Source of the DNA: Spirulina subsalsa PCC 9445
GTDB lineage: Bacteria > Cyanobacteriota > Cyanobacteriia > Cyanobacteriales > Spirulinaceae
Assembly (NCBI RefSeq): GCF_000314005.1
Contig: NZ_JH980292.1
Span: 2,187,725-2,251,724, forward strand
Reading direction: 5' to 3'
DNA length: 64,000 nucleotides
Notes under the pieces: generated by a model
The model's database searches: none
Told to the model about the DNA's origin: nothing
What the model saw: the letters and a program-made list of their open reading frames with translations, nothing else
Shown: piece by piece, positions 23,556 to 59,043 of the stretch
How the letters are laid out: every line of letters starts with the position of its first letter
Numbering within the stretch: position 1 is the stretch's first letter
Translations under genes and position numbers: made by a program

Positions 23556-25646
23556 TTAAGCTTCTTGTTTCAAAACTAATAGGGTGATATCATCAAAAAT
23601 TTGCTGTTTGCCAATATGTCGCCGCACATCCTCAATCACAGCCTCCTTAATATCATGGGCTGAAGCTTGCCAATGTTGGGATATTATAGCACAAAGTTGG
23701 TCAAGTCCGTATTGCTTTTTATTAATATCTTTTGCTTCGGTAATGCCATCCGTATATAGCACAATACTATCCCCCGGTTCTAACTCGACAACGGTATGCT
23801 TGATAAAATCGGCAATATCATCATCTAAGCCTAACGGTAGCCCTAATTCTGTGGTATCAATTCGTTCAATTTCTCCCCCGTTTCTGATCACTAGGGTTTC
23901 TTCATGTTGACCGCTAATGCTGACGGTTTTATCACTATAATTCAATAAAACAAGGGTTAAGTTTTTGTCGGACTGCATCCGTTGTAAATTTTTGTATAAG
24001 GTGCGATTTAAAATATCTAAAAAACGCACATGATCCTGTTCTCGAATTTCTTTTAAAGTGCGGACAGCCGTCTGAGTCATTAACATTAAAATACCACTTT
24101 CTAACCCATGTCCGGTCACATCTCCCATACTAATGGTGACAACGCCATCAATTTCTAGAACATCGTAATAATCGCCGCCTACTTCATCGGCAGGTTCCAT
24201 AAATCCGGCAATATCTAACCCATCAATGTTTAATTCTTCTGGTCGTGGTAGAATCATTTTTTGCATTTGTTGCAGCAGGTCTAATTCAGCGACCATGCGG
24301 AGATTTTCCGTTTTTAATTTTTCATTAAGTAGGTTAATTTCGGCGTTGGCTTGGACTAAATCAGCCGTGCGTTCTTCGACTTTCTTTTCTAGGGTATTAA
24401 AGGCTGTTTCTAACTGTCCGGCCATTGTATTAAAAGCTTTTGCTAAGGTAGCTAATTCCAAAATCCGTCGAGGTCGAATGGATTGTTTTAATTTTCCGGC
24501 CGCCATTTGTGCGGAGGCGGCGGTAATTTCTTCGATGGGTTGACTAATGCGACGGGCGGTAAGAAAACCGACGATTAAAGCGAGGAGAAAGGTGAGAAAA
24601 CAAAGGAGAATTGTGTTGCGGTTGCTGGCGTGAATGTCCTCCATAAAATCGGCTTCTGGGATGATAACAACGACGAGCCAATCTAAACCTAGTTTATCTT
24701 GCCAGGGGGTGACGGAAACAAAGGCGGGTTCTTTACTGAGTTGGAGGAGGAAGTGCTGGGGGGTGTCAATGTTGGGGAAGTCTCCGAGGCGATCGCGTAC
24801 TTTCATCGCTGTATCCCGCATCAGCCTATCTGGACTCTCTAAAATACTCAGCCGTTGTACTTCCCCGTCTACTTCCTTATAAGCGGCTTCTGGACTAGAA
24901 CTGCCCACAATCATCCCATCTCGTTCAATAATAAAAATTCGACTGGAGGGACTCACGTTTAATTCCCCCAAAAAGTCGCTAATTTGAGATAAAATAAAAT
25001 CGACTCCCACCACCCCGATTAACTCTTGCTCTTCGTTATAAACGGGGTAACTAGCGGCAATGGAAATAATATCCGGTCGATCTTCCCAAGCATAGATAGA
25101 ACTCCAGAGGGGCTTTTCTGCTAACACAACGCTTTGATACCATTCATCCTCCTGAAAAGGGTATTCTTCACGGGCTAAAAATTCAGCCCGATTTCCTTGC
25201 TCATCAAGGGCATAGCGTTGATAAATAAAGTCATCCGCTTCTGTCATTTGTTCCGTATAAAGGGAGCCATTATCTTCTCGACCCACCCCAATAAATAATC
25301 CGGCTTCGTTACCGAAATTGATATAACTGAGATTGTCAAAAACCTTCATTTGTCGCCAAAAAAAGCGGGTGGTAATCTCAAGATCCTCGGGATTCAAAAT
25401 CCCTAAGTCAATGGCCTGTAAGTTCATCTCATTGACTTGTCGTGGGATGTCTAAATAACTACTTAACTGTTCACTCACGCGATCGCTGGCTTGGGTACTC
25501 AATTCCGAGGCCAATTCTGTCACCGCTTTTTGTCCATTGCGGAAGGAAAGATAGCCGACAAGTCCCACGGTGGTGACGATTTGCAAAACAAAGGGGACAA
25601 TCAATGTAGTCCGCAGGCGGAAGGTCGTCCGGTTGAGAAAGGTCAT
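23556..25646 (-). CDS. Membrane sensor with dCache, HAMP and SpoIIE-type PP2C phosphatase
   Basis: A 696-residue protein. A first membrane helix (about 12-34) is followed by an extracytoplasmic double-Cache domain (40-340) containing ISIAASYPVYNEEQELIGVVGVDFI. A second membrane helix (about 350-370), a HAMP segment and a coiled coil (to 455) lead to a PP2C domain with MGDVTGHGLESGILMLM and LYTDGITEAKD. It likely senses a small molecule outside the membrane and dephosphorylates a STAS-type antagonist. It is the second SpoIIE-type phosphatase here, 20 kb from the STAS/kinase pair. Confidence 0.9.
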   Translation of the reverse strand: MTFLNRTTFRLRTTLIVPFVLQIVTTVGLVGYLSFRNGQKAVTELASELSTQASDRVSEQLSSYLDIPRQVNEMNLQAIDLGILNPEDLEITTRFFWRQMKVFDNLSYINFGNEAGLFIGVGREDNGSLYTEQMTEADDFIYQRYALDEQGNRAEFLAREEYPFQEDEWYQSVVLAEKPLWSSIYAWEDRPDIISIAASYPVYNEEQELIGVVGVDFILSQISDFLGELNVSPSSRIFIIERDGMIVGSSSPEAAYKEVDGEVQRLSILESPDRLMRDTAMKVRDRLGDFPNIDTPQHFLLQLSKEPAFVSVTPWQDKLGLDWLVVVIIPEADFMEDIHASNRNTILLCFLTFLLALIVGFLTARRISQPIEEITAASAQMAAGKLKQSIRPRRILELATLAKAFNTMAGQLETAFNTLEKKVEERTADLVQANAEINLLNEKLKTENLRMVAELDLLQQMQKMILPRPEELNIDGLDIAGFMEPADEVGGDYYDVLEIDGVVTISMGDVTGHGLESGILMLMTQTAVRTLKEIREQDHVRFLDILNRTLYKNLQRMQSDKNLTLVLLNYSDKTVSISGQHEETLVIRNGGEIERIDTTELGLPLGLDDDIADFIKHTVVELEPGDSIVLYTDGITEAKDINKKQYGLDQLCAIISQHWQASAHDIKEAVIEDVRRHIGKQQIFDDITLLVLKQEA

Positions 25647-25738
25647 AATATAAGGGAGAACAGTAATCTTTTGTTTGCTTGTCTATACAGATGCACAGTC
25701 TTCCTGACAGCAATATAACCCGATGTTTTAGGATCTTT

Positions 25739-26266
25739 ATGAATATTTTTCCCCTTTCCCCCCTAATTCGCCTAACCTTGCTCACGTTCTATGTGGCGCT
25801 GACGCTTCCTCTCCCCTTTCTGGCCGAAGCAACAGACGCACCTGTTCCCTCTTCTTGGCTGTGGGTGGCTTTAGGTCTGGGTTTCGTGGTGGTTTATGGG
25901 TTTTTGAGTGAACGGGTTATCGTGGATGAGGAGCAAATTCAAGTCACTTATCCCCGTTGGGTGCGGGGGGTGTGGCGTCGGGGGTGGATGTTGCGCTGGT
26001 CGGAGATTCAGGACTTAAAAATGCGCACGACTGGACAAGGGGGACTGGTGTATTATTTCACAACCCATCACCAAGAAAGGGCTTATTTATTACCAATGCG
26101 GGTGTTAGGATTTGCGCGGTTGGTGCGTATCGTGCAGGAGAAAACGGGGATTGATACCCAAGATATACGGCCTCTGGCTCAACCTTGGATGTATTTGATG
26201 CTGTTGGGTTGTGCGGTATTGTTGTTGGTGATGGATGGTTTGACGATTTTAACGGCTTTGGGTTAG
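25739..26266 (+). CDS. Membrane protein with PH-like domain, function unknown
   Basis: About 175 residues. Two hydrophobic helices (roughly 8-27 and 35-52) precede a PH-like beta domain (55-130) with VIVDEEQIQVTYPRW and LRWSEIQDLKMRTTG. A third helix closes the protein (MYLMLLGCAVLLLVMDGL). ATG at 25739 with AGGA about 6 nt upstream is preferred to an upstream TTG at 25679. It is divergent from the dCache phosphatase gene and may share its promoter region. The stop codon is directly followed by the solo IS605 right-end remnant. Confidence 0.7.
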   Translation: MNIFPLSPLIRLTLLTFYVALTLPLPFLAEATDAPVPSSWLWVALGLGFVVVYGFLSERVIVDEEQIQVTYPRWVRGVWRRGWMLRWSEIQDLKMRTTGQGGLVYYFTTHHQERAYLLPMRVLGFARLVRIVQEKTGIDTQDIRPLAQPWMYLMLLGCAVLLLVMDGLTILTALG

Positions 26267-26283
26267 CTCATCGTCGGGAGGCC

Positions 26284-26385
26284 CCTAAAAAGACATCTAG
26301 AGCCTCCCGTAGAAACAGGAAAGCCTCATAGTAATATGGGGAAGCCCGCACCGTACCCCTAGGGTCGGTGTCGGGAGGATGTCAC
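26284..26385 (+). mobile_element. Solo IS200/IS605 right end with the last 15 codons of tnpB
   Basis: Positions 26284-26331 encode PKKTSRASRRNRKAS and stop, the same C-terminus as the TnpB at 57574 with one visible change (Asn for Ser). The following 54 bp (26332-26385) match the sequence after that tnpB gene nearly base for base and end in TGTCGGGAGGATGTCAC. There is no transposase. A 23-bp stretch just upstream (26263-26285) also resembles 59022-59043. In related elements this region is the scaffold of the TnpB guide RNA, with the guide taken from the flanking DNA. Confidence 0.75.
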
Positions 26386-26400
26386 AGAGCGGCCTCAGTG

Positions 26401-27393
26401 ATGATACATTACCAAGTCTATGGTCTAGAATTATGTTCCGATGCCCCCATTCCGGGGGTTGCCCCTGTTACTTCAGTCCTTCTTCCTGAGAATTTAATTC
26501 CAGTGTCTTGGGGTCAACCTCTCCCCCAGGTGCTGAATCATCTTGCTCCGTGGTATGTGAGTCCTACTCAGGATTTAGCTGGCTTTCCCCTGTTAATGGT
26601 TTGGCGTTCCTCTCTCAAGGAATCGACCTCCTACCCCCCTGATTTTTTCCATTTCCGCTACAGTGAGGGGGTGGATTTTCTGGTGCAATGTCGCCCCAGT
26701 TGGCGGATTTGGACGACTTGGCAACCTCCCCTAACCCTAGAAGACGCAGCCACCTACTTATTGGGCCCTATTTTGGGTTTTATTTTGCGCCTCAAAGGGG
26801 TGATTTGTTTGCACGCCAGCGCTGTGGCTATTGGGAATCAGGCGATCGCATTTTTGGGCAGTAGTGGAGCGGGTAAGTCCACTACTGCCGCCGCTTTTGC
26901 CCAACAAGGTTATGGCATTTTGTCTGATGATGTCGTTGTCCTTACCCCCCAATTTTTAGTAGAACCTGCCTATCCCCGACTGCGTTTATGGTCGGAATCT
27001 GTTCAACACCTCTACGGTTCACCGGAACACTTACCCCGGATTGTACCCAGTCATCCTACTTGGCATAAACAATATTTAGACCTTACCCAACCCGGTTATC
27101 AATTTCAACCCAACCCTTTACCCTTAAAAGGTATTTATCACCTACAACCTCGAAGTGAAGAAGATCATGCACCTTACTTAACTACAGCTTCTTTGCGTAG
27201 TCATTTAATTTCCCTAGTTACAAATACTTATACCAACTATTTGTTAGATAAACCCCAACGGCAACAAGAATTTATTCTGCTCAATCGGCTATTAAAAACA
27301 ACACCAGTGAAAAAAATCACTCCTCACCAACACCCTGAACGTCTTCCTCAACTCTTAGAGTTAATTCTGAGCGATTTAGCTGATCCCACTTAG
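26401..27393 (+). CDS. HPr kinase-like P-loop protein
   Basis: About 330 residues. The C-terminal half has the HprK-like core: LHASAVAIG, Walker A GSSGAGKST at 153-161, and ILSDDVVVL near 173-181. The N-terminal 120 residues form an unassigned domain. Such proteins are annotated as HPr serine kinase-like or as partners in peptide-modification clusters. No PTS or lasso-peptide gene is visible here, so the substrate is unknown. ATG at 26401 (MIHYQVYG) is the probable start; a longer frame from 26368 would begin inside the IS605 remnant. Confidence 0.75.
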   Translation: MIHYQVYGLELCSDAPIPGVAPVTSVLLPENLIPVSWGQPLPQVLNHLAPWYVSPTQDLAGFPLLMVWRSSLKESTSYPPDFFHFRYSEGVDFLVQCRPSWRIWTTWQPPLTLEDAATYLLGPILGFILRLKGVICLHASAVAIGNQAIAFLGSSGAGKSTTAAAFAQQGYGILSDDVVVLTPQFLVEPAYPRLRLWSESVQHLYGSPEHLPRIVPSHPTWHKQYLDLTQPGYQFQPNPLPLKGIYHLQPRSEEDHAPYLTTASLRSHLISLVTNTYTNYLLDKPQRQQEFILLNRLLKTTPVKKITPHQHPERLPQLLELILSDLADPT

Positions 27394-47992: not shown

Positions 47993-48063
47993 TTTCTCTA
48001 ACCCACTCCCCAAGAAGTGGGTTAGAGAAAAATTCAGTCTAAAACCCCGTCCTTCTAGGACGG
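47993..48063. terminator. Two hairpins between psbU and tnpA
   Basis: A perfect 15-bp stem (47993-48007 with 48016-48030, core TCTAACCCACT/AGTGGGTTAGA) is followed on the + strand by AAAATTC. A second stem, CCGTCC-TTCTA-GGACGG (48047-48063), is followed by CTTTTCTTG. The second is typical of IS200/IS605 ends; either may terminate psbU transcription. Confidence 0.6.
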
Positions 48064-48456
48064 CTTTTCTTGTTCCTGAATATAGCGTTTAAGCACTTCG
48101 AGAGGTGCGCCTCCAACGGAACTCACAAAATAACTCGGACTCCATAGCGCATCTTTCCCATAGGGCTTAGGATATCCGGCTTGACCGTATTTCCTACTGG
48201 ACACACCTTTTAGAGTATTAACCATCTGAGACACTGAAAGCTTTGGTGGGTACTCAATTAAAGTGTGAATATAGTTCGCTTCACCGTTAAATTCTTTGAT
48301 TTCAAAATTCATTTTAGCCGCGACTTCTTTGAAGCTGATTTCAAGCACATCAAGGCTTTCAGTCGTCAGAATCTTAGATCTGTATTTGGTCACGCAGACC
48401 AAATGGATCAGAAGACTTGAGACACTATGCCTTTGCCTGCGTAAAGTGCTTGTCAT
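48055..48456 (-). CDS. tnpA: IS200/IS605 family transposase TnpA, probably inactive
   Basis: A 133-residue Y1 HUH transposase for single-strand transposition. It has HLVCVTKYRSKIL near the start, GVSSRKYGQ, and the nucleophile Tyr125 in LKRYIQEQ. The metal motif normally reads His-hydrophobic-His; here residues 62-64 are Tyr-Ile-His (NGEANYIHTLIEYPP). The change is a single C-to-T step in the first His codon and should harm metal binding. A stub of a divergent tnpB lies upstream, so the element was probably two-gene and has decayed. Confidence 0.85.
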   Translation of the reverse strand: MTSTLRRQRHSVSSLLIHLVCVTKYRSKILTTESLDVLEISFKEVAAKMNFEIKEFNGEANYIHTLIEYPPKLSVSQMVNTLKGVSSRKYGQAGYPKPYGKDALWSPSYFVSSVGGAPLEVLKRYIQEQEKPS

Positions 48457-57519: not shown

Positions 57520-57650
57520 GTGACATCCTCCCGACACCGACCCTAGGGGTACGGTGCGGGCTTCCCCATATCACTATGAGGCTTTCCTGCTTCTACGGGA
57601 GGCTCTAGATGTCTTTTTAGGGACATCCCTGATAACCTCTTCCTCTACAG
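57520..57650 (-). ncRNA. Candidate omegaRNA / right end of the IS605 tnpB element
   Basis: The 54 bp after the tnpB stop (57573 down to 57520) end in TGTCGGGAGGATGTCAC and contain the hairpin GGTACGG/CCGTACC-type pairs in GCCCGCACCGTACCCCTAGG. In studied IS605 elements an RNA covering the tnpB 3' end and this right end is the guide RNA. The guide would then be TACCAATCAATTCATATTAG, minus strand, just past 57520. No RNA evidence exists here; this is by analogy. Confidence 0.5.
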
Positions 57651-58810
57651 GCAGCTTGACCCCCAGTCCAAGGGCTGCAAGTCCACGCTGCTCGACTATC
57701 ATCGCCGCCGCAACGTCCCTATCCGTTACAAACCCACAATGAGAACATTTATGCACTCGTTGAGACAAGTCTTTCTTACCAGTCACTACACCACAATTCG
57801 GACAAATTTGGCTAGTGAAATTAGCATCAACTTTCTCAAAATAAACATCTCGTTTCCAAGCCACGTGCTTTAATACCTCTAGAAAACCCCCAAAGCCAGC
57901 ATCAAGGGTAGGTTTACACAACATTCCCCTAGACATGGCTTTGACGTTTAAATCTTCGGCAAAAATGATATCGGCTTGGTCACAAAGATGATGAGCGACT
58001 TGATAATGAAAGTTTTTGCGAGTGTTGTAAATATGTTCATGAAGTTTAGCTACTTTTTCCCGGGCTTTATGCCAGTTTTTTGACCCTTTCTGTTTCTTTG
58101 ATAATCTTCTTTGTAGCCATTTAAGCTGACTTTGAAGTTCCAAGAAAAACTTAGGTCTAGCTATTAATTCCCCCTGAGATGTTGCTATAAACTTCTCAAG
58201 TCCCAAATCAATCCCTAGAGATTTTCCTTGAGGTTTTGGAGAAGGAATATTAACATCCGACTGAATATAAAGGACAGCATACCAACCCGAAGCTTTTTTA
58301 ACGATCTGAACTTGTTTAACTACAAATCCATCGGGGATGGGTCTGTGTAGATTAATGACCACAGAGCCTAGCTTAGGGAGTCTCAATTGATATCCAGTTA
58401 CAGGGTTTTCCCTGAATTGAGGAAAGTTAATCGACCGAAACTGACCATATTTCTTAAACCTAGGGAAAACCAAAACTTTTTTTCCAGAAAAAGTTAAACG
58501 CCTTGTCTAAACGCCCCATAACCTCTTGCAAGACCTGAGACTGAACTCGTTTTAGTTCTGGGTATTGCTGTTTGGCTTGAGTTAAAGCTTTTTTCTGTTT
58601 ATAATAGTCGGGAAAAGGTTGATCCGCAGGTATAATGTACTCAGAATGAAGGCTACAAGCGTTAACCTGACACTTGCGAGAATTTATCCACTCTTTTCGT
58701 TCTGCCAAGGCATAATTATATACACCTCGACAGATTTCTAGCCAGTCAAGTAATTCTTTTTCTTGACTGGCATCTGGATAAATTCTGTAGCAATAGTTGA
58801 GGTTTAACAC
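57574..58810 (-). pseudogene. tnpB: TnpB (IS605 OrfB) broken by a one-base frameshift
   Basis: The minus strand reads MLNLNYCYRIYPDASQEKEL from GTG 58810 to the TAG shortly after GFP (58460). A second frame then begins VFPRFKKYGQFRS and runs to 57574. The joint lies at an A7 tract; with six A the reading KKVLVFPRFK is continuous. The RuvC acids are all present: Asp in GIDLGLEKF, Glu in FAEDLNV and Asp in TDRDVAAA. The zinc finger CPNCG...CSHCG is present too. It totals about 415 residues, normal for TnpB. No tnpA is adjacent. Confidence 0.85.
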
Positions 58811-58924
58811 GAATAGTAGCTGATTGACCTGAACCGATTATACAATATCTAGGGATAAATCGTCACTCCCTAGTAAATGATTGTTGGTTAATTTTCGGGG
58901 CATCGAACCCCTCAATTAACCGTC

Positions 58925-59043
58925 TTTCATCCCGACACTGACATTTGCTACGCAACGCTTTGCTACGCAACGCTTTGCGTTCACTTCGTGACGCTTCGTG
59001 AACGCGAACGTACAGTGCGGGGCTTCCCGACGATGAGCTAAAA
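58925..59043 (-). mobile_element. Second, interrupted IS605 right-end-like sequence
   Basis: On the minus strand CGTCGGGAAGCCCCGCACTGTACG (first 20: CGTCGGGAAGCCCCGCACTG) aligns with the scaffold of the tnpB right end (GGGAAGCCCGCACCGTAC). After an insert of palindromic GCGTTGCGTAGC DNA (about 58945-59010) the match resumes with TGTCAGTGTCGGGATGAAAG. It lies upstream of tnpB in the same orientation and looks like the scar of an earlier element. The surrounding gap, 58811-59195, has no other gene. Confidence 0.55.

What the first reader, a model, noticed from the sequence alone, without database searches (positions are those of the whole stretch)
26263..26400. Stand-alone IS605 right end that could encode a guide RNA for TnpB
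The last 15 codons of tnpB plus the 54-bp right end are preserved with no transposase. In known systems this is the omegaRNA scaffold, and the guide is the DNA next to it, here AGAGCGGCCTCAGTGATGAT, which leads into the HprK-like start codon. If transcribed, it could guide a TnpB made elsewhere (for example from 57574) in trans.
Basis: partly seen in the sequence, partly recalled or inferred. Interest (0 to 1): 0.62.

Follow-up and report, generated by a model that had tools for sequence, protein, structure and literature searches.

The report
Transposon remnant with intact guide-RNA scaffold
A 119-base leftover of a jumping gene in a cyanobacterium has lost its nuclease gene but keeps both tips and a complete guide-RNA scaffold, one of dozens of such leftovers in this genome; it could be loaded by nucleases made elsewhere, but nothing shows that it is.

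Summary
The sequence is real but is not a right end alone. Window 26267-26385 is a 119-bp internally deleted copy of a tnpB-only (IS1341-type) IS200/IS605 element: target TTAG (26263-26266, also the upstream gene's stop codon), left tip, then, fused at CCC, the last 15 tnpB codons and the 54-bp right end. I counted 65 copies in this genome: 8 full length (6 with an open tnpB) and 57 deleted, of which 34 keep at least 95 nt of scaffold. The solo scaffold equals that of an intact element over 99 nt and keeps stems that covary across 25 right ends of the order, so loading by TnpB in trans is plausible. Use is not shown: conservation fits youth, with at best a borderline sparing of one stem; TTAG plus the guide was not found at 0-1 mismatches in this or the sister genome; and the flanks belong to different loci in the sister genome, so the copy sits on a rearrangement joint and its TAM and guide probably do not belong together. 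The tnpB at 57574 is frameshifted. Verdict: a PATE-like relic, new member of a known kind.

The parts
26263..26266 (+). TTAG target, expected TAM; its TAG is the stop codon of the upstream ORF
   Evidence: TAG at this place in 45 of 45 copies with a left end; empty sites of other copies join here
26267..26285 (+). left-end tip (CTCATCGTCGGGA..CCCC, one difference from the family); the predicted left-end hairpin of full copies is lost
26283..26285 (+). CCC microhomology where left tip and right end are fused
   Evidence: inspection against the consensus
26284..26331 (+). last 15 codons of tnpB and stop; 5' part of the scaffold
26324..26341 (+). stem A (CCTCATA/TATGGGG) with GNRA-type loop
   Evidence: 5 of 7 pairs with changes on both sides, 92% of cells paired
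26332..26385 (+). 54-bp right end
26346..26374 (+). stem B, subterminal 3' hairpin
   Evidence: 7 of 9 core pairs with changes on both sides; three further pairs at its foot
26386..26405 (+). flank that would be the guide; runs into the start of the HprK-like gene
   Evidence: position inferred from the empty sites of 15 other copies
25679..26266 (+). upstream ORF that ends at the target (25739-26263 scanned, no Pfam family); its FACHB-351 orthologue is followed by a ribD-like gene
26398..27393 (+). HprK-like gene (start taken from the FACHB-351 orthologue, which follows lasso-type precursor genes)
57520..59037 (-). full-length element of the same family with frameshifted tnpB (ORF 57574-58473)
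48055..48456 (-). Y1 (IS200-like) transposase; whether it moves this family is unknown

Best explanation
It is a tnpB-less, internally deleted copy (PATE-type derivative) of a tnpB-only IS200/IS605 element. Shown: TTAG, left tip and right end fused with the core missing; one of 57 deleted copies counted beside 8 full-length ones; a structurally complete scaffold; flanks from two loci. Inferred: the core was lost by microhomology-mediated deletion, and recombination between copies made it a joint between two loci. It is most likely an inert young relic whose right end any read-through transcript would fold into a normal scaffold; one of the six intact TnpBs could load it, with no known target to act on.
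For: Left and right tips both present. Census: 65 copies after dropping 9 of 74. For 15 other copies the joined flanks align across an empty site in FACHB-351, without duplication. Scaffold identical over the last 99 nt to intact copy L052; stems A and B covary across 25 right ends. Flanks on two separate FACHB-351 contigs. No TTAG-plus-guide site at 0-1 mismatches. Repeat-mediated core deletion in IS605-type elements is described for Haloquadratum (PMC3119063, passages seen).
Against: In deleted copies the scaffold differs from consensus less than the rest (2.1% against 5.0%, Fisher test; 3.4% for the rest without one badly aligned copy), and stem A is intact in 35 of 35 deleted copies, with 1 event in 14 sites against 18 events in the 42 other sites of that stretch; this could mean constraint on the RNA. 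The order of the rearrangement is unknown, and there are no transcript data to show inertness.
Confidence: 0.72

Rival explanations
1. A working trans-acting omegaRNA gene: read-through from the upstream gene is cut by a family TnpB at the scaffold's 5' side, and the loaded complex cuts DNA that carries TTAG plus the guide, i.e. chromosome copies that lack the element.
For: Scaffold identical to that of an intact element; six intact TnpBs, one of which (L095) was scanned and has PF01385, PF07282 and PF12323 and matches the solved TnpB endonuclease 8bf8/8ex9 at E 2.4e-31; stems A and B have mean pair probability 0.97 in a read-through context; the element follows the upstream stop codon on the same strand. 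TnpB processes the 5' but not the 3' side in vitro, and processed species range from 79 to 466 nt (PMC10278001, sections seen).
Against: No target at 0-1 mismatches in two genomes; the nearest site with TTAG has 2 guide mismatches, and matches at 2-3 mismatches are fewer than for the reversed control pattern. The sister genome's site has 5 more bases after TTAG and further changes. TAM and guide probably come from different loci. No promoter-like site.
Confidence: 0.18
2. A recombination scar: two copies, one at the upstream gene's TTAG stop and one at the TTAG before the HprK-like gene, recombined and joined two loci; the scar's only effect is the new gene order.
For: The left flank matches FACHB-351 up to TTAG and one base more, the right flank from about the element end, on two contigs, both matches inside their contigs. 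FACHB-351 has TTAG 5 bases before the base that corresponds to the first guide base. Own ribD and lasso-type genes lie elsewhere in the genome. At least 18 of 44 other copies have both flanks on contiguous FACHB-351 DNA.
Against: No reciprocal product was seen: the stretches around the own ribD (L120) and the own precursor gene (L126) hold no end of this family at up to 3 mismatches; L124 holds a copy, but between the folK-like and synthase genes. The ancestral order is unknown. Not exclusive of the best explanation.
Confidence: 0.45
3. A cis-acting element: the right end supplies a ribosome-binding-like GGGAGGA, an alternative start or an mRNA structure for the HprK-like gene.
For: An in-frame GTG at 26368 inside the right end would extend the ORF; the purine run 26373-26379 lies upstream of the start.
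Against: The run ends 18 bases before the native start at 26398; the start region is shared with FACHB-351, which lacks the element there; no terminator-like site by a simple scan.
Confidence: 0.05

Closest known systems
PATEs (palindrome-associated transposable elements) of Haloquadratum walsbyi, PMC3119063 (passages seen)
   Same: Transposase-free derivatives of IS605-type elements, some apparently formed by repeat-mediated core deletion, short target sequence at one end, no target duplication, a terminal-only version of 52 bp.
   Different: Cyanobacterial host; this copy has lost the predicted left hairpin and sits on a rearrangement joint; the paper is from 2011, before omegaRNA was described.
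IS200/IS605 TnpB omegaRNA (reRNA), ISDra2 and others: PMC8612924 (passages), PMC10278001 (sections)
   Same: Scaffold made of the 3' end of tnpB and the right end, subterminal hairpin close to the guide, guide from the flank, TAM equal to the target at the left end.
   Different: Here tnpB is absent in cis; no transcript or cleavage is shown; the TAM would be TTAG.
Stand-alone omegaRNAs reported for IscB, and PATEs beside TnpB elements in Geobacillus (recalled; both papers were looked up by DOI and are not held)
   Same: Guide scaffolds without the nuclease gene, possibly served in trans.
   Different: Recalled only; not compared here.
MITEs and IS1341-subgroup elements of Anabaena sp. 90, PMC3542288 (passages)
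   Same: A cyanobacterium with many short mobile repeats and several IS1341-subgroup elements.
   Different: Those MITEs were said to have no evident similarity to the inverted repeats of ISs in that genome.

Membership tests
PATE / deleted derivative of an IS200/IS605 (IS1341-type) element | no transposase or complete tnpB inside | tested here: met
   119 bp, 15 codons of tnpB
PATE / deleted derivative of an IS200/IS605 (IS1341-type) element | both ends of the parent element at the two termini | tested here: met
   left tip and right end match full copies
PATE / deleted derivative of an IS200/IS605 (IS1341-type) element | near-terminal palindromes at both ends | tested here: inconclusive
   right hairpin intact; the left hairpin predicted in full copy L095 is lost, a new 8-bp stem is predicted near the left tip
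PATE / deleted derivative of an IS200/IS605 (IS1341-type) element | short target at the left end and no target duplication | tested here: met
   TTAG before this copy, TAG at the same place in 45 of 45; 15 empty sites of other copies without duplication; this copy itself has no contiguous empty site in FACHB-351
PATE / deleted derivative of an IS200/IS605 (IS1341-type) element | mobilised in trans by a Y1 transposase | tested here: inconclusive
   deleted copies of like structure at different sites, such as L096/L100 and L064/L066, though repeated deletion could give the same; 5 Y1 matches in the genome, none with an end of this family at 3 or fewer mismatches in the 1.5-kb flanks held
TnpB omegaRNA | conserved scaffold structure with subterminal 3' hairpin | tested here: met
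   (hairpin ends 11 nt before the guide as predicted); no Rfam match on this scaffold
TnpB omegaRNA | cognate TnpB with open frame in the same genome | tested here: met
   six open copies, 97-100% identical to the L095 query; scaffold identity 99 of 99 with one of them, L052
TnpB omegaRNA | TAM-flanked target that matches the guide | tested here: inconclusive
   none at 0-1 mismatches in own or FACHB-351 genome; absence is also expected at an occupied site
TnpB omegaRNA | transcribed and bound by TnpB | not testable with these tools
   no expression data

The most novel reading that the evidence does not exclude
A few intact TnpBs in this genome are shared by a pool of some 35 tnpB-less scaffold loci with different guides, at least four of them (L056, L065, L105, L109) placed directly after the stop codon of a host ORF and so open to read-through; this copy, at a rearrangement joint, would direct cutting of chromosome copies that still have the parental order and so help to fix the rearranged order in a polyploid cell.
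Probability: 0.07. Interest if true: 0.65.

Novelty: new member of a known kind. Interest (0 to 1): 0.32.

Why it matters
In one nearly closed genome (two contigs), loss of tnpB has often left complete guide scaffolds behind (34 of 57 deleted copies keep at least 95 nt) while intact TnpBs of the same family remain. That makes a direct test possible: whether TnpB uses guides from copies other than its own. If it does, transposon relics would be a distributed guide array; if not, TnpB must strongly prefer the RNA it is made from.

Tried and rejected
Right end alone: rejected, the left tip and the target are present.

Partner at 57574: rejected as an example, its frame is split.

Conservation as proof of function: rejected. 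Deleted copies with at least 95 nt of scaffold differ from consensus at 81 of 3789 scaffold sites and 235 of 4738 other sites (Fisher p 2.5e-12; full copies 11 of 896 and 181 of 10230). But 83 of the 235 come from one copy, L084, whose upstream stretch aligns at only 67% and may be another element; without it the other rate is 152 of 4428 (my arithmetic). Changes shared by descent count many times. As distinct events: 10 in 38 stem sites, 27 in 62 other sites; stem A 1 in 14; stem B is not spared, and 7 of 35 deleted copies have a broken pair there.

Stem C (CTCCCG/CGGGAG): only 66% of cells paired and not predicted by RNAalifold; not claimed. A competing helix from the left tip appears in the fold of the 119-nt element but has probability near 0 in a read-through context.

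Rfam: no match in the window at gathering score; with E up to 0.1 on five loci, one match only, a HEARO hit below its gathering score in another genome's locus.

Transposase ends: none of five Y1 loci carries an end of this family at 3 or fewer mismatches in the flanks held.

Papers: ten searches listed, among the rows shown, no paper whose title or abstract start is about tnpB-less scaffolds in cyanobacteria. Opened: those named in Closest known systems, PMC11870625 (abstract; discussion), PMC9956272 (abstract), and PMC12558985 (six terms sought, no hits).

Full report
What is there. The finding lies in a 5.32-Mb genome of two contigs. Reading the window gives TTAG at 26263-26266, then CTCATCGTCGGGAGGCCCC (26267-26285), then the last 15 codons of tnpB with the stop at 26329-26331, then 54 bp ending in TCAC at 26385. 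The first part is the left tip of the same family: the full-length element at 57520-59037 (minus strand) has TTAG and CTCATCGTCGGGAAGCCCC at its left end and the same kind of right end. So the object is a left tip fused to a right end at CCC, with the core missing.

Family census. The right-end pattern has 74 sites at up to 2 mismatches and the left-end pattern 49 at up to 1 mismatch; the reversed controls have 0. I fetched all 74 right-end sites. I dropped 9 before counting: one chance match without homology and eight of other or diverged subfamilies. Of the 65 left, 8 are full length (1.45-1.59 kb) and 57 are deleted, some of them down to the tips; 37 of the 57 have a left end (found at up to 2 mismatches), 34 keep at least 95 nt of scaffold, 23 have both. 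Six of the 8 have an open frame of 420-441 codons; one has 368; the window copy is split into 125 and 310. The census is not complete: a covariance model later found a further strong scaffold at C2:1744700 (91 bits). With that model 13 of 13 genomes searched have matches at E up to 1e-4: 75 in the own genome, 17 in G001, 2 to 13 in the other eleven.

Ends and target. For 15 copies the joined flanks align across an empty site in FACHB-351, in L052 and L109 with insertions or gaps close by. The join falls at TTAG followed at once by the right flank, without duplication; FACHB-351 itself reads TTAG in 8 of 15 and something else in 7 of 15. Thus the flank after TCAC is the former downstream neighbour of TTAG, as expected for a TnpB guide and TAM (PMC8612924, passages). 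All 45 copies with a left end have TAG there.

Scaffold. I aligned the last 90 nt of the solo copy, one full copy and 23 right ends next to related tnpB genes of the order (25 rows; 6 of the 30 loci gave no clear right end and were left out). For a three-helix structure drawn on the solo copy, 82.8% of cells pair (67.6% in shuffles, 36-47% when slid, a control that favours a structure drawn on one row), 89 cells have changes on both sides (shuffles 32.8, none of 500 as high) and the covariation score is 0.474 (shuffles 0.198, none as high). Two measures do not clearly exceed the shuffles: pairs with a change on both sides (15; 65 of 500 as high) and further pair types (37; 285 of 500). The support is in stem A (92% paired) and stem B (87%); the third helix is weak (66%). 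RNAalifold finds A and B on its own. The solo copy keeps these pairs and is identical over the last 99 nt to intact copy L052. In a read-through context its stems A and B have mean pair probability 0.97.

Is it used? Nothing shows it. TTAG plus the first 13 guide bases has no match at 0-1 mismatches in either genome. At 2-3 mismatches there are 7 in the own genome, one of them the locus itself, and 8 in FACHB-351, fewer than for the reversed pattern (27 and 16); the nearest with an intact TTAG has 2 guide mismatches and occurs once in each genome. A simple consensus scan found no promoter-like or terminator-like site in 25550-26500 (shuffles 1.2 and 1.4), so transcription would probably have to come from the upstream gene, which ends exactly at the target. 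Constraint on the scaffold cannot be separated from youth: see Tried and rejected.

A joint, not a simple insertion. In FACHB-351 the upstream gene is followed by a ribD-like gene, and the HprK-like gene is preceded by an asparagine-synthase-like gene and two short precursor-like genes, as in lasso-peptide clusters (gene names and the lasso reading are from recall, no family search was run on them). The two are on different contigs. In the present genome the matches to the folK-like, synthase and first precursor genes lie at C2:2073589-2076808 and to ribD at C2:2775161, far from the window locus at C2:2213987. The left homology ends at TTAG plus one base, the right homology begins about at the element end; in FACHB-351 a TTAG lies 5 bases before the base that corresponds to the first guide base. 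At least 18 of 44 other copies have both flanks on contiguous sister DNA (my count). Recombination between two copies is the simplest account, but no reciprocal product was seen and the order of events is open.

Stop codons. In 9 of 45 copies with a left end, the TAG of the target is the stop of an ORF of at least 60 codons, against 6 of 242 TTAG sites in the same upstream DNA and 11 of 514 in the window, this one included. Selection against insertion inside genes can explain this. Such copies, this one among them, lie on the strand of the gene before them. Four of the nine keep at least 95 nt of scaffold (L056, L065, L105, L109).

Verdict. What it works like, if it works, is a TnpB guide RNA supplied in trans; what it is, by the tests made, is a deleted IS1341-type derivative of the PATE kind (PMC3119063, passages). 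The individual copy is ordinary; the surplus of scaffolds over nuclease genes in this genome is the part worth a test.

Noticed in passing
window 26263-26266 and 44 other copies: Elements sit on the TAG stop codon of an ORF of at least 60 codons in 9 of 45 cases, against 11 of 514 TTAG sites in the window, so these are co-directional with the gene upstream.
   Followed up: partly
window 26398-27393; L041: The HprK-like gene appears orphaned from a lasso-peptide-type cluster that lies about 137 kb away in this genome and next to it in FACHB-351.
   Followed up: partly
own genome: 79 matches to the TnpB C-terminal family PF07282 in one 5.3-Mb genome, but only 5 Y1 transposase matches.
   Followed up: no
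full copies such as L095 near the 3' end of tnpB; left ends of many copies: Short G+C-rich microrepeats sit both near the left end and near the tnpB 3' end; several deletions have a border there (position 1363 of the consensus), which may explain why about 112 nt of right end is often kept.
   Followed up: partly
L044:2057-2110 and many sites of the own genome: A dispersed repeat (GTAGGTTGGGTGAAGCGCC..) follows the unoccupied TTAG in FACHB-351 and has dozens of matches in the own genome.
   Followed up: no
L058, L062, L070, L091, L093, L105, L108: Seven deleted copies share a one-base-longer variant (GCACCG for GCAGG) absent from the 8 full copies, as if a subfamily had spread without tnpB.
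   Followed up: no
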